Assembly: GCA_021323635.1 (NCBI GenBank)
Contig: JAJPKQ010000041.1
Location: forward strand, 1-64,000
Origin: a bacterium
GTDB lineage: Bacteria > Actinomycetota > Thermoleophilia > Solirubrobacterales > Solirubrobacteraceae
Direction: 5' to 3'
Length of the DNA: 64,000 bases
The number at the start of each line of letters is the position of its first letter. Position 1 is the first letter of the stretch. The translations under genes and the position numbers were made by a program. The notes beneath the pieces were generated by a model, which was not told where the DNA came from, made no database searches, and saw only the letters and a program-made list of their open reading frames with translations. This document shows, piece after piece, positions 24,207 through 37,283 of this stretch.

Positions 24207-25112
24207 ATGAGCGCCGAGCAACAGGTGCAGAGCGTGCTCGAGGATCAGATCCTCACGCTCACGCTCAACCGGCCGGAGCGGCTGAACGCCTGGACGCCGC
24301 AGATGGCCCGCGAGCTGATCGCGGCCTTCGAGCGCGCCGACGCCGACGACGAGGTGCGCGCGGTGATCGTGACCGGCGCCGGACGCGGCTTCTGCGCCGG
24401 GGCTGACCTCGCGGCGGGCGGCCAGACCTTCGACCTGCGCGCTCGCAGCGCAGCGATCGGCGAGCTGGAGGTGGGGGCGCGCTCGGCGCCCGAGCCCTCT
24501 GCCGAGCACCCGCCGCGCGACAACGGCGGCCAGCTCGTCCTGCGCATCTTCGAGTGCACCAAGCCTGTGATTGCGGCGATCAATGGCCCCGCCGTGGGCG
24601 TCGGTGCGACGATGACCCTGCCGATGGACATCCGCCTCGCCTCCAAGGATGCCCGGATTGGCTTTGTGTTTGTGCGTCGTGGAATCCTCCCTGAGGCCTG
24701 CTCCAGCTGGTTTTTGCCGCGGATCGTAGGCATCAGCACGGCGCTTGAGTGGACGCTGAGCGGCCGGGTGCTCTCCGCCTCGGAGGCGCATGCAGGCGGG
24801 CTCCTGCGCTCGCTCCACGAGCCGCAGGAGCTGATCCCCGCCGCGCGCGCGATCGCAGCTGAGATCATCGCCTCCGCAGCACCCGTCTCGGTTGCGCTCA
24901 CCCGGCGGTTGCTCTGGCGGATGCTTGGCGCAGAGCATCCGATGATCGCCCACCGCGCGGACTCTCGCGGCATGTTCCTGCGCGGTCGCTCCGCAGACGC
25001 AGCTGAGGGCATCGAGGCGTTCCTCCAGAAGCGCCCTGCGCGCTTCCCCGAAAAGGTCTCAAGCGACCTGCCGGAGATCATGCCCGGCTACGAGCCCCCT
25101 GAGTTTGCCTAG
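24207..25112 (+). CDS. enoyl-CoA hydratase/isomerase (crotonase) family protein
   Basis: Crotonase fold acting on acyl-CoA. The oxyanion-hole segments are GRGFCAGADLA and NGPAVGVGATMTLPMDIRLAS, and RRGILPEACSSWFLPRIVG holds the region of the catalytic glutamates. The 301-aa length and the segment GGLLRSLHEPQEL fit enoyl-CoA hydratases; the chain-length preference is unknown. The ATG at 24207 lies 8 nt after TACCCT (24193-24198), a likely -10, so the transcript is probably near-leaderless. The HyuA-HyuB fusion gene starts 4 bp after its stop. Confidence 0.9.
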   Translation: MSAEQQVQSVLEDQILTLTLNRPERLNAWTPQMARELIAAFERADADDEVRAVIVTGAGRGFCAGADLAAGGQTFDLRARSAAIGELEVGARSAPEPSAEHPPRDNGGQLVLRIFECTKPVIAAINGPAVGVGATMTLPMDIRLASKDARIGFVFVRRGILPEACSSWFLPRIVGISTALEWTLSGRVLSASEAHAGGLLRSLHEPQELIPAARAIAAEIIASAAPVSVALTRRLLWRMLGAEHPMIAHRADSRGMFLRGRSADAAEGIEAFLQKRPARFPEKVSSDLPEIMPGYEPPEFA

Positions 25113-25116
25113 CGGC

Positions 25117-28100
25117 GTGAGCGCTCACGGCGGGCTCAGCCTGCTCGGCGTCGACGTCGGCGGAACCTTCACCGACGCGGTGTTGATCGCGCGCGGCCGC
25201 CTGCGCAGCGTCAAGGTGCCCTCCACCCCGGCGCAGCCCGAGCGGGCGATCCTCGACGCCCTCGCGGCGCTGCTCGAGGGAGCGCCCGAGCCGACGCCGC
25301 TCGCCCGCTTTGCCCACGGGATGACGGTCGCCACCAACGCGCTGCTCGAGGGGCGCATGGCATCGACGGCGCTGATCGCAACCGAGGGCTTCTGCGACAT
25401 CATCGAGCTCGCTCGCCAGCAGCGCGCGGAGCTCTACCGCCCCTGCGCGCCCCATCCGCCCGCGCTGAGCCCCCCTGAGCGGCGCCTCGGCGCCCGCGAG
25501 CGGACGCTCCCTGAGGGGGTGGAGCGGGAGCTCTCCGCCGCGGCGCTGCAGGAGCTGATCGCGGCGATCGCAGCAGCGGAGGTGCAGGCGGTGGCGGTCT
25601 GCCTGCTTCACTCCTACGCCCACCCCCAGCACGAGCAGATGATCGCCGAGGCGCTTGCCGAGGCCCTGCCCGACGTGCACGTCTCGCTCTCCCACGAGCT
25701 CGTCGGAACCATCCGCGAGTACGAGCGAGCCGCCACAACCGAGCTTGACGCGGCGCTCTCGCCGCTGCTCTCAGGCTACCTGCGCGCGCTTGGGCGCGCG
25801 ACGGCGCGCCGGTCGCTGTGCGCGCCCTCCGTCATCTCCTCCTCGGGCGGGCTGCTCGACATCGAGCGCGCCGCCGCACACGCGGCGCTGACGCTGCTCT
25901 CAGGGCCCGCCGGCGGCGTCCGCGGGGCGCAGCTGATCGCCAGGCGCGCCGGCGAGCCCGATGCGCTCTGCTTTGACATGGGCGGCACCTCCTGCGACGT
26001 CTGCCTGATCCGTGGGGGCGAGGTCGGCGAGAGCGCGCAGCGCACGCTCGCCGGGCGTCCGGTCGCGCTGCCCGCGCTTGACATCATCACGATCGGCGCC
26101 GGCGGCGGCTCGATCGCCTGGCGCGATCGCGGCGGCGCGCTCTGCGTCGGGCCGCGCTCCGCCGGGGCCAGCCCCGGCCCCGCCTGCTACGGACGTGGCG
26201 GCAGCGAGCCGACCGTGACAGACGCCAACCTGCTGCTCGGGCGCCTGCGCGCGGAGGTCGCGCTCGCAGGCGGCCTGCGGCTGGATCCGGCCGCCGCGGA
26301 GCGGGCGATCGCGGCGCTCGCCAACTCGCTTGGCATCGGCACGCTCGCCTGTGCTGAGGGCATCGTGCGCGTGGCCGAGGAGGAGATGGCGCGCGCCCTG
26401 CGCCTGGCAAGCGTGGAGCGCGGGATCGACCCGCGCTCGATGGCGCTGCTGGCCTTCGGCGGCGCCGGCCCGCTGCACGCCGCCGCCCTCGCGCAGGCGC
26501 TCGGCATCGAGCGCGTGCTCGTGCCGGGCAGCGCGGGCGTGCTCTCCGCGCTCGGCCTGGCCGCGGCGCCGCCGCGAGCCGACGTCGCGCGCACGGTCCT
26601 GCTTGCTGGAGAGGCGCTCAGCGCCGAGCGCATCAGATCCGCCATCCGCGAGCTTCTGGCGCGAGCATCTGCCGCCCTGCGCGAGCCCACCGAGCGCGTG
26701 CGCGTCACCTATGAGCTGCGCTATGTCGGCCAGTCCTTCGAGCTGCCCGTGATCGACGAATGCACGCAGCGGGAGCCGGAGGTCGACGTGCAGCGGCTCT
26801 GCGCGCGCTTTGGCCAGGAGCACGAGCGTCGCTTCGGCTACCGCCAGGAGGGAGAGCCGATCGAGCTGGTGACGATCCGCGTGAGCGCCTTTGGCGGCAG
26901 CGCTGAGGTCGCCGAGCAGGCGCTCGTCGCCGCCGCGGACAGCGGCGAGGCACCGCCCCTCCCGATCAGCCTGATCTGCGACGGATCGGTGCGTCCGGCG
27001 CGGCTGCACCGGCGGCTGCCGGAGCCCGGCGAGCCGATCAGCGGACCGGCGGTGATCGCGCTGGCGAGCTCCACCGTGCTGGTGCCCGAGCGCTGGCAGG
27101 CGCGCACGCTGGCGGGAGGCACCCTGCAGCTGCGCGTGGATCGCGAGGTGGTCGAGCGCGACGATCGCCGGCGGGAGCTGCGCCGGGCGCCCGCCATGGC
27201 GCGCCCCGCCCGGCGCCTTGACCCCGTCTCGCTGCGCATCAGCCTTGGCGCGCTGCACTCGATCTGCGAGGAGATGGGGAGCGTGCTCGTGCGTGCATCG
27301 CACTCGGCCAACATCAAGGAGCGCCGGGACGCCTCAAGCGCGCTCTTTGACGCCGCCGGGCAGCTGGTCATGCAGGCCGAGCACATACCGGTGCATCTGG
27401 GCGCGATGCCCGAGGCGGTGGCGGCGGTGCTCGGCTTCGAGCAGCGGCCGGGGAGCTCATTCATCCTCAACGACCCCTACGCCGGCGGCACGCACCTGCC
27501 GGACATCACGATCATCACCCCCGCCTTCCTGGCCGGCGAGCTGATCGGCTTTGCAGCCACGCGCGCCCACCATGCCGACGTCGGCGCAAGCGAGCCCGGG
27601 TCAATGCCCGCGCACTCGCGCACGCTCGCCGAGGAGGGGATCGTGATCGCCCCCCAGCGGATCGAGACGGAGACGATCGAGCGTCTGGTCGCCTCGATGC
27701 GCCAGCCGCGTGAGCGCCGCGCAGATCTGCGCGCACAGCTTGCCTCCTGCCGGCTCGGCGCCGAGCGGCTGCGCGCGCTCGCCTCAAGCGTCGGCGCCGC
27801 GCGCCTGCACGCCCAGCTCGACGCCGTGCTCGACTACGCTGAGCGGCGCATGCGCAGCGAGCTTGTCCGACTGCGCGAGCGCCACGGCGAGGAGCTCCAC
27901 AACGAGGACGTCCTGGAGGGCTCCGAGCACGAGCTCACCCTGCGTCTGCGCGTGCTGCTTGGGCAGGGCTCCGCGACGCTCGACTTTCGCGGCTCCGCCC
28001 CCGCCGATCCAGGCAACCTCAACTGCCCGCTTGCCGTCACCCGCTCGGCCTGCTACTACGCGCTGCGGGTGCTGTGCGACCCCGACATCCCCCCCTGCGC

Positions 28101-28779
28101 CGGCTCTTACCGACCGCTGCAGGTGCTCGCAGACCCCGGCTCGATCCTTGACGCCAGGCCGCCCGCCGCGGTGGCGGCGGGCAATGTCGAGACCTCCTCG
28201 CGCGTCGCCGATCTCGTGCTCGGCGCCTTCGGGCGCGCGCTGGGCCAGGGGACCATGAACAACCTCACCCTCGGCAACGAGCGCTTCTCCTACTACGAGA
28301 CGATCGGCGGCGGCCAGGGCGCCTGCCCGGACGCACCGGGCCCAAGCGGTGTGCACGTGGCGATGAGCAACACGCTCAACACCCCTGTGGAGACGCTCGA
28401 GCGCGACTACCCGCTGCGTGTGCGCAGCTACGCGATCAGGCGCGGCAGCGGCGGCGAGGGGCGCCACCAGGGCGGCGATGGCGTGGTACGCGAGATCGAA
28501 GCCCGCGAGCAGATGCGCTTCTCGCTGATCGCCGAGCGCAGATCGCATCCCCCGCGCGGCGCCCAGGGGGGCGCTGACGGCGCGCCCGGGCGCGACCGCC
28601 TGCTGCGCGCAGGAGGCCCGGCGCTGGGGGAGCCGCTCGCCGCCAAGAGCTCCGGCACGCTGCAGCCAGGCTGGCGCATCCGCGTCGAGACACCGGGCGG
28701 CGGCGGCTTTGGCTCGCCCGCGCGCCGGCGGCGCCAGCGACCGCGCCAAGCCAGCGAAGGGGAGCCCGACAGCCGCTAG
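25117..28779 (+). CDS. fused hydantoinase/oxoprolinase HyuA-HyuB
   Basis: A 1220-aa ATP-dependent amidohydrolase combining both subunits. Residues ~1-690 are Hyu[16 protein letters not shown] (ASKHA phosphate loop), [26 protein letters not shown] and [10 protein letters not shown]. Residues ~700-1205 are Hyu[36 protein letters not shown] and [12 protein letters not shown]. Families act on 5-oxoproline, hydantoins or N-methyl hydantoins, or carboxylate ketones; the substrate cannot be inferred. Bacterial HyuA and HyuB are usually separate genes, while fused forms resemble eukaryotic 5-oxoprolinase. The GTG at 25117 lies 4 bp after the enoyl-CoA hydratase stop. Confidence 0.93.
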
Positions 28780-29654: not shown

Positions 29655-30083
29655 CTAGGCCTCCTTGCCGCCTTCCAGCAGCGCTTCCCGCGCCGCCTGC
29701 AGGCCGCCGGCGGCGACGAAGACGTCAAAGGGGCCGCCCGCCAGCAGCTCCGGGATCGGACGATCGGCTGCTCGCCGCAGCAGCGCAGGGATGCCCGCGT
29801 CCAGGAGCAGCTGGCGCACCATCTCCCCCTCCGGCTCATTGCTTGCGCGCGTCAGGCGCACGAGCGGCCCCTCGGCGTAGCGGGGGTTGATCTTGCGCGC
29901 CTGCTCGCGCAGCGCGCTCGGGCGCCCTGCGCCCTGGCCCCGCTGAGCCACTCTGCCAAGGGGGACGCCGCAGTGCTGGCAGAAGCGCTCCGGCTCGGCG
30001 TGCGTGGTGCCGCAGAGCGGGCAGCGCAGCGCGCCTGCGCGCTCAGCGTGCCGCCTGCTCGCTGCCTGCCGGCGCCACCTCAA
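29655..30083 (-). CDS. zinc-ribbon plus DUF2007-like protein
   Basis: The N-terminal half has a four-Cys ribbon, CPLCG...FCQHCG; the C-terminal half, LVRLTRASNEPEGEMVRQLLLDAGIPALLRR onward, resembles DUF2007 signal-transducing modules. The start is uncertain: the only canonical codon is a TTG at 30083, 41 bp inside mec, and the sequence before CPLCG looks like shadow coding. It lies last in the cysM-mec run. Role unknown. Confidence 0.7.
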   Translation of the reverse strand: MRWRRQAASRRHAERAGALRCPLCGTTHAEPERFCQHCGVPLGRVAQRGQGAGRPSALREQARKINPRYAEGPLVRLTRASNEPEGEMVRQLLLDAGIPALLRRAADRPIPELLAGGPFDVFVAAGGLQAAREALLEGGKEA

Positions 30084-30477
30084 CCACTACCTCCGAGACG
30101 ACCGCGCCGTCGATCAGGTAGGAGCGGACCGCGGGCTCCTCCCCGGCGAGGCCGACGATCAGCCACTCGACTCCCGGCCAGGACTGAGCGAAGTTGATGT
30201 CCGTCTGAGAGGGGTAGGGCGCGGTGCGCGTGTGCGAGTGGTAGATCGCCCCCAGCGACAGCCCTTCGGCCTCGATCCTGTTGTGCAGCTCCAACACCTC
30301 GCGCGGGTCGATCTCAAAGCGCAGCGGGCTTGCGGCGGCGTTGCGCGCGGGATGCACACGCGCGGCCCGGCGCTCGCCCGCGAGCTCGCCGAAGGCGATC
30401 ACCCCGCAGCACTCGTTCGGCGCCTCGCTGAGCGCGTGCTCGACGATCTGAGCGAGTAGCTCCTGCGCGATCACCAT
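30043..30477 (-). CDS. mec: JAMM (MPN+) metalloprotease, Mec-type
   Basis: The 144-aa zinc protease has the full JAMM set: Glu in EAPNECCGVI near residue 22 and HSH-x7-S-xx-D in YHSHTRTAPYPSQTD. In Mycobacterium, Mec+ (Rv1334) releases cysteine from the CysO-cysteine adduct made by CysM; gene adjacency to cysM (30 bp upstream) supports the same job. Unlike in Mycobacterium, cysO is not adjacent but 5.3 kb away. Because CysO here ends GGRR, the protease may also trim the CysO precursor. Confidence 0.88.
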   Translation of the reverse strand: MVIAQELLAQIVEHALSEAPNECCGVIAFGELAGERRAARVHPARNAAASPLRFEIDPREVLELHNRIEAEGLSLGAIYHSHTRTAPYPSQTDINFAQSWPGVEWLIVGLAGEEPAVRSYLIDGAVVSEVVVEVAPAGSEQAAR

Positions 30478-30507: not shown

Positions 30508-31479
30508 CTACCACCAGACGGTCGCGTCGATGTCCGAGAGCTCCTCGAGCGGACGCGTGTAGATGCCGCTGGAGAGGTATTTCCAGCCGCCGTCGGCAAC
30601 CAAGAACACCACATTCCCCTCATCGAGCTCCTCTGCGATGCGCACCGCCACACGCGCGACCGCGCCGGATGAGGGGCCGGCAAAGAGCCCCTCCCGCTCG
30701 AGCAGTCGCCTGGTGAAGCGGATCGCGTCGGCGTTGCGCACGAAGATCTTGCGGTCCAGCAGCGAGAGGTCGATGATCGGCGGGATGAAGCCTTCATCGA
30801 GCGAGCGCAGCCCCTGCACGGGCTCCCCGGGCATCGGCTCGGCGGCGACGATCTTGACCGCCTCGCCGAAGGCCTCCTTCAGGCGCCGGCCGCAGCCCAT
30901 CAGCGTCCCGCCGGTGCCGAGGCCCGCCACGAATGCCGAGACCTCCTCGAGCGCTTCTAAGATCTCAACCGCCGTGCCGTTGTAGTGGGCGGCGGGGTTG
31001 GCCTTGTTGCCGTACTGGTAGGGCATGTACCACGAGGAGTCCTGGGCGGCCAGCTCAAGCGCCTTCTCGACCGCCCCATTGGAGCCCTTGGCGCCCTCGG
31101 AGAAGATCACCTTGGCGCCGTACATCTGAAGCAGCTGGCGACGCTCGGCGGTGACGTTCTCGGGCATCACGACCGTCAGCTCATAGCCCTTGCGCGCGCA
31201 GATCATCGCCAGCGCGATACCGGTGTTGCCGGAGGTCGGCTCGATGATCCGCTGCCCGCGCGCCAGCGCGCCGCGCTCCTCGGCGTCCTCGATCAGCGCC
31301 CGCGCGACACGGTCCTTGACCGAGCCGGTCGGGTTGGTGCCCTCGAGCTTCGCCCAGATGCGCACGCCCTCCTTGGGTGAGAGCGTGGGCAGCTCGACCA
31401 GCGGCGTGTTGCCGATCGCTGCGACCAGGTCGCTGAAGCGACCCGCGCAGGGCTTGTTGCACAGCCGTTCGAGGGCCAT
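30508..31479 (-). CDS. cysM: cysteine synthase, CysM type (CysO-thiocarboxylate dependent, inferred)
   Basis: PLP enzyme, 323 aa. AKLEGTNPTGSVKDRVA contains the PLP lysine, PTSGNTGIALAMICA binds the substrate carboxylate and GLGTGGTLMGCGRRLKE holds the phosphate. The C-terminus DIDATVWW resembles the flexible CysM tail. In actinobacteria this type uses O-phosphoserine and CysO-thiocarboxylate rather than O-acetylserine and sulfide. The mec neighbour and the presence of cysO and an E1-rhodanese in the window support that assignment. Minus-strand TATATT about 10 nt before the ATG at 31479 may be its -10. Confidence 0.9.
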   Translation of the reverse strand: MALERLCNKPCAGRFSDLVAAIGNTPLVELPTLSPKEGVRIWAKLEGTNPTGSVKDRVARALIEDAEERGALARGQRIIEPTSGNTGIALAMICARKGYELTVVMPENVTAERRQLLQMYGAKVIFSEGAKGSNGAVEKALELAAQDSSWYMPYQYGNKANPAAHYNGTAVEILEALEEVSAFVAGLGTGGTLMGCGRRLKEAFGEAVKIVAAEPMPGEPVQGLRSLDEGFIPPIIDLSLLDRKIFVRNADAIRFTRRLLEREGLFAGPSSGAVARVAVRIAEELDEGNVVFLVADGGWKYLSSGIYTRPLEELSDIDATVWW

Positions 31480-31706: not shown

Positions 31707-31804
31707 GGTCTCTGTAGGCATCAGGGATCGAAGATGACGGCGGTTGAGGTTTGCGCGGTGCTCCGGGTCGACGCCAGCAAATAGCGAGCTTCAAGGAGCA
31801 TCGG

Positions 31805-34800
31805 GTGCACAGCACAGCCCACTTCAGGCCCAGGCGCTTACCGCGACTGGCAGGGCGCATCGCCCGCGGGGGGAGCGGACGGCCGCTGCCCTGGGCCAGC
31901 CGGCGCCACCACACGCGTCCCCGCCTGCGCACGCGTGGCGCGCTGAGCGTGTCGCGCCGCCGAGCGCTTGGCGCCCTGGGCGTCTGGGCGCTGGCGGTGG
32001 TCGGGCTCGGGCTGCTCGGCCAGCGTGTCGAAGGTCGCCTCAGCCCGCTCACGCTGGAAGTCCCGGGCTCTCCCTCCGCCAAGGCTGAAGCGCTGCTGCA
32101 GCACAGGTTCGGCAACTCGATACCGATCGCGATCCTGCTGCGCGGCTCACCCCAGGCGCTGGCAAGCCAGGGCCCGGCCGTCGTGCGCTCGCTGCGGACA
32201 CTCTCCAACGTGGAGGTGCTCTCACCCTTCGAAGGCAGCCAGACGTTCGCGTCCGCCAGCAAGAGCGAGCTGCGACCGACACCTGACGCCGCGCTTGTGC
32301 TCGTCAGCTTCATCAGGAGGCAGAGCGAAGCGATGGCGACGGTGCCCGCAACCGAAAGCATCCTCAAGCGCACCGTGCGCGCCCCGGTGCACAGCTACCT
32401 GACCGGCCTGGCGGTGGTCGGCAAGGCGCTGCAGGACGCCACGCTGTCGAGCACCGAGCAGGCGGAGCTGATCGCCCTGCCGGTTCTGATTCTCGTGCTC
32501 CTGCTCGTCTTCCGCTCGCCCGTTGCGGCCGCGCTGCCGCTGCTGATGGGCGGCGCGACGGTGGTCGCCGGACACGGCCTGCTGTGGCTTGCAAGCTTCA
32601 TCACGCCGATCAACTCGCTCGGGGTGGCGATCGCCGCGATGATGAGCCTCGCGCTCGGCGTCGACTACTCGCTGCTGATGATCTCCCGCGTGCGCCAGGA
32701 GCTGGCCGCGGGCGCAAGCCACCCGGCCGCGATCGCCACCGCCAGGCGTCTCGCCGGGCGCACGATCGCGGCAGCCGGCGGCACGCTCGCGCTGACGATG
32801 CTTGCCGCAAGCGCGGTCGCGACGCCGGGCCTGCTCGGACCGGTCGCAATCGGGGTTGTCATCTCGGGGCTGCTCAGCGTCGCGCTGGCGCTCACCGCGC
32901 TGCCCGCGATGCTGCGCCTCCTGGGCCCCCTGCTCAACCGCTGGGAGCTGCGGCTGCCGCGGCGAGGCCAGGGGCGCTCGCTCCCCGGCGCTGCGGCCCT
33001 GGCGCAGCGGCTGCTGTCGCATCCGGCGCTGGTCGCCCCGGCGATCCTGCTTGGCATGCTGGCGCTCGCGGTGCCGGCAGGAGCGCTGCAGATGGGCCCG
33101 CCGGATCCCTCCGAGCTTCCCGCCGGCAGCCCGGTTCGCACCGCGGTCAGAGTGGTTGAACGGACCATCGGCCCGGGCTGGACGGCGCCTTTTGTCATCA
33201 TCGCAAACGCCCACAGCGGCCCGATGACGACATCGCAGCGCATCGATGCGCTCGCGCGCTGGCAGGCTGAAGTCGCGCGGGCACCCGATGTCGCGGCAGT
33301 GCTCGGGCCCGCCTCGGTCGCCGGCGCACAGCAGCGCCTCGCCGAAGCGCACGTGCAGCTTGCAGCTGCGCCGCGGCAGCTCACCGCAGCCGATCGCGGC
33401 GTCGCTGGCCTGCGCTCGGGCCTGCAGAGCGCGCGCTCAGGAGTGCAGGCGCTGCGCAGCGGCCTCGCTGCCGCGCTTGGCGGCGCCAAGGCGCTGGGCT
33501 CGGGCCTGCAGAGCGCGCACGGCGCGGCCGGTGAGCTGGCAAGCGCAGGCGGGCGCGCTCACAGCGGCGCGCAGGCGCTGGCCGCCGGCGCCGGAGTCGC
33601 CCAGCAGGGCGCAAGCCGCCTGGCGGCCGAATCGGCTCGCGCACGCGCGGGGGCGGGCGAGCTGGCCTCGGCTAGCGCCCGCGCGCACGCCGGCGCAAGC
33701 CGCCTGGCGGCCGAATCGGCTCGCGCACGCGCGGGGGCGACGCAGATCGCAGCCGCCGCGGAAGGCGCCCAGCAGGGCGCAAGCAGCCTTGCCGCCGAAT
33801 CGGGGCACGCGCGCGCGGGCGCCGGCGAGCTCGCCGAAGGGCTGGCGCAGGCCGCAGACGCATCGGCGCAGCTGGCGCACGGCCTGGGCGAAGCCGAAGC
33901 GGGCGCGAAGGCGCTGGCGGCATCGGACCATCGGCTCGCGACCGGCGCCGCAGAAGAGGCGACGGGGATGGAAGAACTTGACGCGACCGTCCGCGCAGTC
34001 GCAGCGCCACTGCAGCTGCTCAGCGAAGAGCTTCACGCCTGGGCGGGCCTGATCGAAGCCTCGCGCAGCTCTGAAGCCGCAATCGAAGCAAAGCTTGAGG
34101 AAGCGATGCGCCAGCTCGAAGCGATGACGCTCGGACGCGAAGACCCCCGCTACCCCGCGCTCGCCCAGGCGCTCTCCTCGCTCAAGGGCATGCTTGAAGG
34201 CAGTGGGCTGGCGAGGCTCGAAGGCGGACGCAGACAACTGCAGAGCGCGCTCGAACGCCTGCTTGCGCTCCCCGAAGAGCTCTCGAAGCTCCTGACCGAC
34301 TTCAACCGCCTCACGGTCGGCGCCAGAAGAATCGCGACGGGCGCTCAGGAATCCGAAGAAGGCGCCCAGCGGCTGAGCTCCGCGATCGATGCTCTGCACC
34401 ACGGCAGCGGGCAGCTCGCGGGCGGCATGCAGAGCCTGCAGGCCGGCGCTGGCCGGCTCGAGGGCGGCCTTGCGCTGCTTGAAGCCGGCAGCGGGCAGCT
34501 CGCGGGCGGCCTCGGCCAGCTCAGCGCGGCCAACCGAGGTCTGGCGGGCGGCTTGAACGCGCTGGCAGGGGGCAACCAGGCTCTTGCAGGCGGCCTGGGA
34601 AGGGTTGCCACGGGCAGCGATCGCCTCGCTGGGGGCCTGGGGACGCTGGCGGCGGGCAACCGGCAGCTGGCAGGCGGCCTGGGCGCGGCCGTCGCGGGCA
34701 GCGGTCGCTTGGCCGGAGGCCTGGAAGCTCTGGCCGCGGGCAACCGGCAGCTGGCAGGCGGCCTGGGCGCGGCCGTCGCGGGCAGCGGTCGCTTGGCCGG

Positions 34801-35779
34801 CGGCCTCGCGAGCGCCCATCAGCGCACGGGCGCGCTGCAGGCGGGCCTCGCAGCGGCGCAACGACCCCTCGCTCACTACGCGGCGATGCTAGAACGCTAT
34901 GAGCACGACTTCCGGCTGCTGCACGCAAAGGCGCCGGGCACGCTCGACTCCGGCTACCTAGTGCTCGCTGCGCTCGACGGCACCGTCGGCGCAGCGCGCG
35001 AACAGGCAGCGCAGCTGGTCAATGTCAACGGCGGCGGCCAGGCGGCGCGCATGATGATCATCGCCGCAAGCCCGCCCAACTCCGCAGCGACCGCGGCGCT
35101 CTCCGCGCGTCTGCGGGCCTCGCTGCCGGCGCTAGCGCGGGCGACCGGCGCGACCGTGCAGGTCGGTCAGGGTGCGCAGTACCTGCTCGACTACAAGAAC
35201 GCCAACACCGCGCGCTTCCCCTGGCTCGTGCTCTCGCTGGCGGCGATCGCCGCACTGATGCTGATCGTGATTCTGCGGGCGCTGCCGCTGGCGCTGATCG
35301 CCGTCGCGCTGAACCTCGCGACGATCGCGGTCGCGCTCGGCGCGCTGGAGCTGCTGACCGCAACGCACCTGCTCGGCGGTCCCGGCTACATCGACGCGGC
35401 CTCCGGCGCGGGCATCGTCTCGATCATGTTCGTCCTCTCGATCGACTACGAGGTGTTCCTGCTGATGCGCATGCGCGAGCACTGGCTGGCGCGCCGCGAC
35501 GCCAATGCGGCGATCTTCCACGGGCTGGGCAACACGGCCGGCGTGATCACCGGATCGGCCGCGATCATGACGGCGGTCTTCTGCGCCTTTGCCAGCGCCT
35601 CGGTGGTGCCGCTGCGTCAGTTCGGCATCGGCCTCACGATCGCGGTGCTGCTCGATGCGACGCTCGTCCGGCTGGTCCTGCTGCCGGCGCTGATGCGGCT
35701 GGCAGGCGCGCGCATCTGGTGGCTGCCGCGCGCGCTCGAGCGCCGCCTGCCGGCAATCGAGGGCACCGCGTCAGCCTGA
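31805..35779 (+). CDS. MMPL/RND-type exporter with very long repeat-rich extracytoplasmic domain
   Basis: A 1324-aa membrane exporter. An N-terminal helix (~residues 53-71) precedes a first extracytoplasmic loop, then helices at ~220-400 containing LGVDYSLLMISRVRQE; a second loop of about 700 residues follows, and a second helix bundle at ~1137-1290 containing MFVLSIDYEVFLLMRMRE. Both GVDYS and SIDYE motifs fit MMPL proton relays. The second loop holds 14-residue repeats such as AAGNRQLAGGLGAA, likely a helical stalk. The GTG at 31805 has AAGGAG with 6-nt spacing. Glu codons are often GAA, unlike neighbours that prefer GAG. Substrate, probably a lipid or hydrophobic compound, is unknown. Confidence 0.92.
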   Translation: MHSTAHFRPRRLPRLAGRIARGGSGRPLPWASRRHHTRPRLRTRGALSVSRRRALGALGVWALAVVGLGLLGQRVEGRLSPLTLEVPGSPSAKAEALLQHRFGNSIPIAILLRGSPQALASQGPAVVRSLRTLSNVEVLSPFEGSQTFASASKSELRPTPDAALVLVSFIRRQSEAMATVPATESILKRTVRAPVHSYLTGLAVVGKALQDATLSSTEQAELIALPVLILVLLLVFRSPVAAALPLLMGGATVVAGHGLLWLASFITPINSLGVAIAAMMSLALGVDYSLLMISRVRQELAAGASHPAAIATARRLAGRTIAAAGGTLALTMLAASAVATPGLLGPVAIGVVISGLLSVALALTALPAMLRLLGPLLNRWELRLPRRGQGRSLPGAAALAQRLLSHPALVAPAILLGMLALAVPAGALQMGPPDPSELPAGSPVRTAVRVVERTIGPGWTAPFVIIANAHSGPMTTSQRIDALARWQAEVARAPDVAAVLGPASVAGAQQRLAEAHVQLAAAPRQLTAADRGVAGLRSGLQSARSGVQALRSGLAAALGGAKALGSGLQSAHGAAGELASAGGRAHSGAQALAAGAGVAQQGASRLAAESARARAGAGELASASARAHAGASRLAAESARARAGATQIAAAAEGAQQGASSLAAESGHARAGAGELAEGLAQAADASAQLAHGLGEAEAGAKALAASDHRLATGAAEEATGMEELDATVRAVAAPLQLLSEELHAWAGLIEASRSSEAAIEAKLEEAMRQLEAMTLGREDPRYPALAQALSSLKGMLEGSGLARLEGGRRQLQSALERLLALPEELSKLLTDFNRLTVGARRIATGAQESEEGAQRLSSAIDALHHGSGQLAGGMQSLQAGAGRLEGGLALLEAGSGQLAGGLGQLSAANRGLAGGLNALAGGNQALAGGLGRVATGSDRLAGGLGTLAAGNRQLAGGLGAAVAGSGRLAGGLEALAAGNRQLAGGLGAAVAGSGRLAGGLASAHQRTGALQAGLAAAQRPLAHYAAMLERYEHDFRLLHAKAPGTLDSGYLVLAALDGTVGAAREQAAQLVNVNGGGQAARMMIIAASPPNSAATAALSARLRASLPALARATGATVQVGQGAQYLLDYKNANTARFPWLVLSLAAIAALMLIVILRALPLALIAVALNLATIAVALGALELLTATHLLGGPGYIDAASGAGIVSIMFVLSIDYEVFLLMRMREHWLARRDANAAIFHGLGNTAGVITGSAAIMTAVFCAFASASVVPLRQFGIGLTIAVLLDATLVRLVLLPALMRLAGARIWWLPRALERRLPAIEGTASA
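33611..33823 (+). repeat. 84-bp period direct repeats in MMPL gene, block 1
   Basis: A 45-bp segment at 33611-33655 recurs exactly at 33695-33739, and its first bases recur again at 33779: an 84-bp (28-residue) period encoding units like GASRLAAESARARAGA. Confidence 0.85.
34652..34800 (+). repeat. 84-bp period direct repeats in MMPL gene, block 2
   Basis: The 65 bp at 34652-34716 are repeated exactly at 34736-34800, offset 84 bp. The protein unit is two 14-residue repeats (NRQLAGGLGAAVAGSGRLAG). Divergent copies extend upstream to about 34380. Confidence 0.88.
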
Positions 35780-35812: not shown

Positions 35813-36091
35813 CTAGCGCCGCCCGCCGGCCATCGCGGGCAGGATCACCAGCGTGTCGGACTCGGCGACCGGCGTCTGCAGCCCGTCGAGCACGCGCACA
35901 TCCTCGTCGTTGAGGTAGACGTTCACGAAGCGATTGAGCTCGCCCTCGGCGGAGAAGAGCTGCTCGCCGGTGGCCGGATGGGCGGCGACGAGCGCGCTCA
36001 GGACCTCGCCGACGCTGGCCCCCTCGGCGTGCAGCTCGCGCTCGCCGCCGACCGCGGCGCGCAGCACGGGTGGGATCTTCACGGTAGCCAT
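35813..36091 (-). CDS. cysO: CysO-like ubiquitin-fold sulfur carrier ending Gly-Gly-Arg-Arg
   Basis: The 92-aa beta-grasp protein closely matches mycobacterial CysO as I recall it: MATVKIPPVLR at the start, LNRFVNVYLNDEDVRVLDGL in the middle and LVILPAMAGG near the end. CysO is adenylated and thiocarboxylated at the terminal glycine and donates sulfur to CysM. Here the diglycine (residues 89-90) is followed by Arg-Arg before the TAG, so the encoded form cannot be activated without C-terminal trimming. It lies 10 bp downstream of its likely E1, moeZ; the ATG is fixed by homology. Confidence 0.88.
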   Translation of the reverse strand: MATVKIPPVLRAAVGGERELHAEGASVGEVLSALVAAHPATGEQLFSAEGELNRFVNVYLNDEDVRVLDGLQTPVAESDTLVILPAMAGGRR

Positions 36092-36101
36092 GACCGAGAG
36101 G

Positions 36102-37283
36102 CTATCCGGCCGCGGCGCAGAACGCCTCGTAGTCCGGGAATACCCCCATCTCCTGATCGCTGATCTCCTCCGGGGCACGCGAGCAGATCGGGCAGGCGGG
36201 ATCGCGACGGACCTTGACCTCGGTCAGCGTCGCCGCCAGCGCGTCATAGAGCAGCAGACGGCCGATCGCAGGCTCGCCGATCCCGCAGATCAGCTTCACG
36301 ACCTCGGTCGCCTGCAGCAGCCCCATCGTGCCCGGAAGCACGCCCAGCACGCCGTTTGCGCCACAGGAGGGGGCAAGCTCGGCCGGCGGCGGCTCGCGGA
36401 AGAGGCAGCGGTAGCAGGGTCCCTCGTAGGGGACGAAGACCGACAGCTGGCCGTCGAAGCCCAGGATCGACGCTGAGACGACCGGCTTCTTCAGCCGCAC
36501 GCTGGCGTCGTTGAGCAGGTAGCGCGTGGGGAAGTTGTCGAGCCCGTCCACGATCACGTCATAGTCCGAGATGATCTCGAGGATGTTCGAGGCGTCGATG
36601 CGCACCGGGTACTTGACGACGTTCACGTCCGGGTTCAGCGCCGTGATCGTCTGCTCGGCGGAGTCCACCTTCGGCACCCCGATGCGCTCGCTGTTGTGGA
36701 TCACCTGGCGCTGCAGGTTGGAGCGATCGACCGCGTCGTTGTCGACGATCCCAAGCGTCCCCACGCCGGCCGCCGCAAGGTAGAGCGCCGCGGGCGAGCC
36801 CAGCCCGCCGGCGCCCAGCAGCAGCACCTTGGCGTCAAGCAGCTTCTGCTGGCCCTCCAGCCCGATCTCCGGGACAAGCAGGTGGCGCGAGTAGCGATCA
36901 AGCTGCTCGGCGCTGAGCGTGCGCGGGATCTCGACCTCGTAGCCGCGGTCCTTCCAGAGCGTGATGCCGCCGGTCATCGAGCGCACGTTCTGGTAGCCAA
37001 GCTCGTTGACGAGCGTGCGCGCGGCATAGGCGGAGCGCACGCCGGAGGCGCAGTAGAGGATCACCGCCGCGCCGCGGTCCGGCACGGTCGCTTCGAAGCG
37101 CGACTCCAGGTAGGCGCGCGGCACGTGCTTGGCGCCGGGGATCTTGCCTGCCGAAAGCTCCTCGGTCTCGCGCACATCGACGATCACAACACCCTCCTCG
37201 CGCAGCTCCTTGACCTCCGCGGGATCGACCTCGACGATCTCGCTCTTGACCCTGCGCAGCAGCTCTGCACCGGTAACGCTCAT
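36102..37283 (-). CDS. moeZ: rhodanese-ThiF fusion, E1-like sulfur-carrier activating enzyme (MoeZ/MoeB-like)
   Basis: 393 aa. Residues ~15-120 are a rhodanese domain with the active-site Cys in LYCASGVRSAYAA; residues ~130-370 are the ThiF/MoeB adenylating domain with LLGAGGLGSPAALYLAAAGVG, VDNDAVDRSNLQRQ and zinc CxxC pairs CYRC and CPIC. It should adenylate CysO (and possibly MoaD or ThiS) and pass sulfur from the rhodanese cysteine. In mycobacterial MoeZ the rhodanese is C-terminal; here the order is reversed. The ATG at 37283 has AGGAG upstream and a TATACT -10 about 44 nt away. Confidence 0.92.
   Translation of the reverse strand: MSVTGAELLRRVKSEIVEVDPAEVKELREEGVVIVDVRETEELSAGKIPGAKHVPRAYLESRFEATVPDRGAAVILYCASGVRSAYAARTLVNELGYQNVRSMTGGITLWKDRGYEVEIPRTLSAEQLDRYSRHLLVPEIGLEGQQKLLDAKVLLLGAGGLGSPAALYLAAAGVGTLGIVDNDAVDRSNLQRQVIHNSERIGVPKVDSAEQTITALNPDVNVVKYPVRIDASNILEIISDYDVIVDGLDNFPTRYLLNDASVRLKKPVVSASILGFDGQLSVFVPYEGPCYRCLFREPPPAELAPSCGANGVLGVLPGTMGLLQATEVVKLICGIGEPAIGRLLLYDALAATLTEVKVRRDPACPICSRAPEEISDQEMGVFPDYEAFCAAAG

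What the first reader, a model, noticed from the sequence alone, without database searches (positions are those of the whole stretch)
35813..36091. CysO sulfur carrier with a Gly-Gly-Arg-Arg C-terminus needing proteolytic maturation
The CysO homologue is otherwise near-canonical, but two arginine codons (35816-35821) separate the diglycine from the stop. CysO as known ends in free Gly-Gly, which the E1 adenylates. The encoded form should be inactive until Arg-Arg is removed. A JAMM protease of the Mec class, which cleaves after this diglycine in the CysO-Cys adduct, is encoded 5.3 kb away. QbsE/QbsD is a known analogy where a JAMM enzyme removes two residues after Gly-Gly. This predicts a dual-role Mec: precursor trimming and cysteine release.
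Basis: partly seen in the sequence, partly recalled or inferred. Interest (0 to 1): 0.72.

Follow-up and report, generated by a model that had tools for sequence, protein, structure and literature searches.

The report
Capped CysO sulfur carrier, likely Mec-trimmed
This small protein, which carries sulfur for making cysteine, has two extra arginines after its working Gly-Gly end; such short, ever-changing caps turn out to be the rule in its bacterial family and are most likely clipped off by the neighbouring metalloprotease Mec, a kind of arrangement already known from a few other bacteria.

Summary
In detail: window 36091-35813 (-) encodes a CysO homologue ending LPAMAGGRR. It is neither a sequencing error nor an oddity. 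Of 107 orthologues from the same family (named relatives: Solirubrobacterales), 97 have 1-21 residues after GG and 10 end in GG. The sequence up to GG is nearly invariant; tails differ between species (12 states among 21 species of the own genus). Tails are not random: 73% are 1-2 residues (3% expected), and the first residue after GG is Ala, Arg, Ser, Gly, Cys or Thr in 93 of 97, never Pro. The threonine-synthase-linked paralogue mostly ends in bare GG. Mec is present in all 71 good-quality genomes, and moeB-cysO-cysM-mec is a conserved cluster. One actinobacterium has CysO fused through GG to CysM. Best explanation: Mec, presumably kept for releasing cysteine from CysO-Cys, also trims the cap. 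Capped actinobacterial sulfur carriers that depend on a JAMM protease are already published (PtmS1/S2/S3), so the kind is not new. The test of co-occurrence with mec was inconclusive, and no cleavage was shown here.

The parts
35813..36091 (-). CysO-type sulfur carrier (ThiS/MoaD family), 92 aa, ending Gly-Gly-Arg-Arg
35816..35821 (-). two Arg codons (CGG CGC) after the diglycine: the cap
   Evidence: compared with 107 orthologues
30043..30477 (-). Mec-type JAMM metalloprotease: HSHTRTAPYPSQTD at residue 80 and the Glu of NECCG near residue 22; the only Prok-JAB gene of the genome above cut-off; candidate trimming enzyme
30508..31479 (-). CysM-type cysteine synthase, the expected partner of thiocarboxylated CysO
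   Evidence: conserved order
36102..37283 (-). rhodanese-MoeB/ThiF-type E1 directly upstream of cysO (start at 37283 inferred); expected to adenylate the Gly-Gly carboxylate and sulfurate it
29655..30083 (-). zinc-ribbon plus DUF2007 protein overlapping mec; homologues found in 49 of 80 related cysO loci; role unknown

Best explanation
The gene encodes a pro-form of CysO. MoeB-type E1 enzymes need a free C-terminal glycine carboxylate, so the GGRR form should not be activated until Arg-Arg is removed. The Mec JAMM protease most likely cuts after the second glycine, the same bond position it is expected to hydrolyse in the CysO-Cys adduct. Mature CysO-GG is then adenylated and sulfurated by the adjacent rhodanese-MoeB, donates sulfur to the aminoacrylate on CysM, and Mec releases cysteine. 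Because Mec acts after GG on every cycle anyway, a short cap costs little and drifts freely, provided that the first residue after GG can be cut. Shown here: the sequences, the tail statistics, the conserved cluster, the intact JAMM motif, the GG-CysM fusion. Inferred: the cleavage, the enzyme responsible, the inactivity of the capped form.
For: Caps in 97/107 family orthologues, lengths 1-2 in 78. First residue after GG A40 R26 S14 G7 C4 T2 of 97, no Pro (12.4 expected), 2 bulky hydrophobic (16.8 expected); the depletion holds against C-termini of 728 other genes in related loci (p 1.7e-8 and 4.5e-10) and after collapsing to 68 genus-tail pairs (p 6.8e-11). Within the phylum CysO and JAMM co-occur: 165 both, 9 CysO only, 20 JAMM only, 102 neither. 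moeB-cysO-cysM-mec, same strand, in 54 of 80 loci. Paralogue mostly bare GG: 7 of 21 tailed against 97 of 107. CysO-GG-AA-CysM fusion in G166 right after mec, no start codon at the joint. Published precedents: the JAMM gene ptmS1 is needed for thioacid production where PtmS2 and PtmS3 are capped with MV and C (PMC6006322); MoaX is cut after GG before Ser (PMC4326299); DRJAMM cuts a MoaD-MoaE fusion (PMC8832034).
Against: No cleavage data. JAMM-less genomes are not consistently uncapped: 3 of 7 readable ones have tails (AG, CGAAR, R), Fisher p 0.22. Mec is kept in genomes whose CysO ends in bare GG, so its presence gives no specific link to the cap. For tails of two or more residues Arg directly after GG is uncommon (3 of 57), so RR is not the typical cap. 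The p-values do not correct for shared descent.
Confidence: 0.74

Rival explanations
1. The cap is removed, but by another enzyme, for example a carboxypeptidase that prefers C-terminal Arg or a general protease; Mec acts only on CysO-Cys.
For: Tails end in Arg in 43 of 97 cases against 12.5% of control genes; capped carriers occur in 3 genomes without a detected JAMM.
Against: Tails such as A, S, GL, AQG, APGLPG or SPLDHEIA do not suit one carboxypeptidase, and the constraint lies on the residue after GG. In the published Streptomyces case loss of the JAMM gene abolishes use of the carriers.
Confidence: 0.13
2. The cap is not removed; GGRR CysO is inactive or has another role, and the paralogue with bare GG (G000:C15:51310-51579) is the working sulfur carrier.
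For: The genome has a second CysO-like protein that ends in bare GG.
Against: The capped protein sits in the moeB-cysO-cysM-mec cluster and is conserved at 62-83% identity with a nearly invariant C-terminal LPAMAGG in almost all family genomes, while the paralogue is beside threonine synthase.
Confidence: 0.06
3. The tails are purely neutral read-on after stop-codon loss, with no constraint of any kind and no need for trimming because the E1 tolerates them.
For: Hypervariable sequence and length; several first codons are single-step changes from TGA, such as TGC and CGA.
Against: Random downstream frames give a median of 34 codons to a stop and only 3% at 2 or fewer, against 73% observed; the first residue is strongly restricted.
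Confidence: 0.07

Closest known systems
PtmS1/PtmS2/PtmS3 of Streptomyces platensis (PMC6006322)
   Same: actinobacterial sulfur carriers capped after GG (MV, C), JAMM gene beside the capped carrier, JAMM needed in vivo
   Different: sulfur goes to thioplatensimycin; caps differ; the present case is tied to cysM and has RR
M. tuberculosis Mec/CysO/CysM
   Same: same three proteins, same cluster logic; CysO aligns over its full length
   Different: M. tuberculosis CysO ends in GG and needs no trimming
QbsE/QbsD of Pseudomonas (cited in PMC6006322; details from memory)
   Same: JAMM enzyme removes residues after GG before activation
   Different: siderophore pathway, distant sequence
HcyS/HcyD of Wolinella (from memory; no paper found in the library)
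   Same: JAMM-type enzyme removes a residue after GG of a sulfur carrier
   Different: homocysteine route, not CysM
MoaX of M. tuberculosis (PMC4326299) and MoaD-MoaE of Deinococcus (PMC8832034)
   Same: carrier freed by a cut after GG; DRJAMM is the enzyme in Deinococcus
   Different: fusion to MoaE rather than a short cap; the MoaX protease was not identified in that paper

Membership tests
CysO sulfur carrier | ThiS/MoaD beta-grasp sequence, full-length match to M. tuberculosis CysO | tested here: met
CysO sulfur carrier | clustered with cysM and mec | tested here: met
   window order plus 54 of 80 related loci
CysO sulfur carrier | encoded C-terminus is free Gly-Gly | tested here: not met
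   GGRR; but also not met by 97 of 107 family orthologues, so it cannot be a defining feature of the wider family
CysO sulfur carrier | thiocarboxylate formation and sulfur donation to CysM | not testable with these tools
   needs biochemistry
Mec (JAMM, Prok-JAB) | JAMM motif Glu...HxH...S..D | tested here: met
   NECCG Glu near residue 22, HSHTRTAPYPSQTD at 80-93; motif found by pattern in 28 of 30 Mec loci
Mec (JAMM, Prok-JAB) | hydrolysis of CysO-Cys | not testable with these tools
   needs biochemistry
capped sulfur carrier with JAMM maturation (QbsE/PtmS2 type) | residues after GG and a JAMM gene in the same cluster | tested here: met
capped sulfur carrier with JAMM maturation (QbsE/PtmS2 type) | cap absent where JAMM is absent | tested here: inconclusive
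   3 of 7 readable carriers in JAMM-less genomes tailed, p 0.22; incomplete assemblies and paralogues confound
capped sulfur carrier with JAMM maturation (QbsE/PtmS2 type) | JAMM enzyme removes the cap | not testable with these tools
   needs biochemistry

The most novel reading that the evidence does not exclude
The cap is kept by selection as a gate: newly made CysO is locked until Mec frees it, so carrier activation is coupled to the supply of the same enzyme that releases cysteine. In some species (tail exactly Cys, e.g. G079, G008, G218) the gene even encodes CysO-Cys, the natural Mec substrate. The under-representation of bare GG (10) relative to one-residue (40) and two-residue (38) tails in this family would fit.
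Probability: 0.15. Interest if true: 0.55.

Novelty: new member of a known kind. Interest (0 to 1): 0.4.

Why it matters
It turns a reported handful of capped sulfur carriers into what looks like a common state: two thirds of the sampled CysO-like proteins in Actinomycetota have residues after GG. That matters for annotation and for assays (recombinant CysO may need the cap removed), gives a natural data set of what a Mec-type JAMM may accept after GG, and offers a CysO-CysM fusion as a direct test substrate.

Tried and rejected
Sequencing error for RR: rejected, independent genomes have RR. Tail/mec co-occurrence within the family: uninformative because mec is universal in good genomes. The same across the phylum: inconclusive. 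Wider occurrence of the CysO-CysM fusion: the other two genomes of that family lack it. HcyS/HcyD and Amycolatopsis BexX/CysO papers: not in the library. Structure prediction was not run: the tool folds single chains only, and the question is about a protease-substrate pair.

Full report
What is there. Window 36091-35813 on the minus strand encodes a 92-residue ThiS/MoaD-family protein ending LVILPAMAGGRR. It aligns over its whole length with M. tuberculosis CysO in structure 3dwg, which stops at the second glycine. The gene starts ten bases after the stop of a rhodanese-MoeB E1 (36102-37283, start inferred). A CysM-type synthase (30508-31479) and a JAMM protease (30043-30477) follow on the same strand, after a 4 kb MMPL gene on the other strand. 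The JAMM motif is intact (the Glu of NECCG, HSHTRTAPYPSQTD at 80) and this is the only Prok-JAB gene of the genome above cut-off.

Is the tail odd? No. I read the C-termini of 107 orthologues from the same family (named relatives are Solirubrobacteraceae/Solirubrobacterales). Ninety-seven continue past GG by 1-21 residues; 40 have one, 38 have two, 10 have none. Tails in the window's own genus alone are R, RR, AG, GR, SR, AQG, L, S, TRAPSL, AE, a 21-residue one, or nothing. The sequence up to GG is nearly invariant. RR occurs independently with different codons. Eighty loci from the named genome collection, which largely overlap this set, give the same picture (67 tailed, 13 bare).

Is the tail random? 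No. In downstream DNA the first stop is a median of 34 codons away and within two codons in 3% of frames; 73% of the orthologues have a tail of one or two residues. The residue right after GG is A 40, R 26, S 14, G 7, C 4, T 2 of 97, with no proline (12.4 expected) and two bulky hydrophobic residues (16.8 expected); the second residue is much less restricted. Against C-termini of 728 other genes in related loci the depletion remains (1 of 40 one-residue tails, p 1.7e-8; 3 of 57 longer tails, p 4.5e-10), and it survives collapsing to 68 genus-tail pairs (p 6.8e-11). These p-values do not model the phylogeny. Tails also end in Arg more often than control genes do (43 of 97 against 12.5%), for which I have no firm explanation.

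Is it specific to this carrier? Largely. The genome has a paralogue beside threonine synthase that ends in bare GG. Of 21 such paralogues (20 in the family, one in the order), 14 end in GG, and the six tailed ones in the family have a single Arg; tailed 7 of 21 against 97 of 107 for the cysM-linked carrier (p 7e-8).

Context. The order moeB-cysO-cysM-mec on one strand is found in 54 of 80 loci; most others hold part of the same set, in many cases on short contigs. The distance from cysO to mec runs from 0.7 to 6.8 kb, so 5.3 kb in the window is ordinary. mec is found in 138 of 146 family genomes and in 71 of 71 of good quality, including the genomes with bare GG. So Mec is kept for another reason, presumably CysO-Cys hydrolysis, and trimming would be an additional use.

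Across the phylum (296 genomes, completeness at least 90%) CysO-like proteins and JAMM genes co-occur strongly: 165 both, 9 CysO only, 20 JAMM only, 102 neither (not corrected for phylogeny). Of 101 readable C-termini 68 are tailed and 33 bare; both states occur within 9 families. This set takes the best hit per genome and therefore mixes the two paralogues. One genome (G166) has CysO joined through GG-AA to a complete CysM, directly downstream of mec, with no start codon at the joint and both domains matching Pfam. Seven carriers in the two sets have a tail of exactly Cys, the same sequence as the CysO-Cys adduct.

The test that failed to decide. If caps need Mec, JAMM-less genomes should have bare GG. 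Of seven readable carriers in such genomes four are bare and three tailed (AG, CGAAR, R), against 67 of 99 tailed with JAMM outside the family (Fisher p 0.22). Two of the three belong, by sequence and neighbours, with the threonine-synthase-linked paralogue, and the third genome may simply be incomplete, but this is not support.

How it likely works. CysO-GGRR is trimmed to CysO-GG, most likely by Mec; MoeB adenylates and sulfurates it; CysM uses it; Mec releases cysteine. The restriction of the residue after GG and the shortness of tails fit a processed pro-peptide whose only requirement is to be cut. The cleavage and the enzyme are inferred; the roles of MoeB, CysM and Mec are taken from the M. 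tuberculosis pathway (established knowledge), not tested here.

What is known. Iyer et al. 2006 predicted that JAB enzymes free ThiS/MoaD from fusions (PMC1779556). PMC6006322 (2018) describes PtmS2 (cap MV) and PtmS3 (cap C), the clustered JAMM PtmS1, and loss of thioacid products when ptmS1 is inactivated, and states that capped carriers typically need a protease, as exemplified by QbsD. MoaX is cut after GG before Ser (PMC4326299) and DRJAMM cuts MoaD-MoaE (PMC8832034). HcyS/HcyD is from memory. So the window feature is a further member of a known kind; the breadth, the hypervariability with a restricted first residue, and the CysO-CysM fusion are the parts I did not find described in the library that was searched.

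Noticed in passing
L369 (G166:C157), reverse strand; also L253: CysO and CysM are one open frame (399 aa), joined GG-AA-HDSILDAIGNTP, right after mec: a natural fusion that must be cut after GG if the carrier is to work.
   Followed up: yes
L099 (G079), L237 (G008), L284 (G218), L304 (G196), L271 (G315), L298 (G296), L295 (G420): CysO-like genes whose tail is exactly one Cys, so that the primary translation product equals the CysO-Cys adduct.
   Followed up: partly
L002 1489-1764; L350-L368: A second CysO-like carrier, directly downstream of threonine synthase in the own genome, is widespread in this family and mostly ends in bare GG; its role is not clear.
   Followed up: partly
window 29655-30083 (-): Zinc-ribbon plus DUF2007 protein overlapping mec; homologues in 49 of 80 related cysO loci.
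   Followed up: partly
window 31751-35779 (+): MMPL-family transporter with a very long repetitive Ala/Gly-rich insert (LAGGLGALAAGNRQ-like units) placed between cysO and cysM on the opposite strand; a homologue is near cysO in only 1 of 80 loci.
   Followed up: partly
window 25105-28779 (+): Hydantoinase/oxoprolinase A and B subunits fused into one 1224-residue protein.
   Followed up: no
CysO tails of the own family: Tails end in Arg in 43 of 97 cases against 12.5% for other genes; reason unknown.
   Followed up: partly
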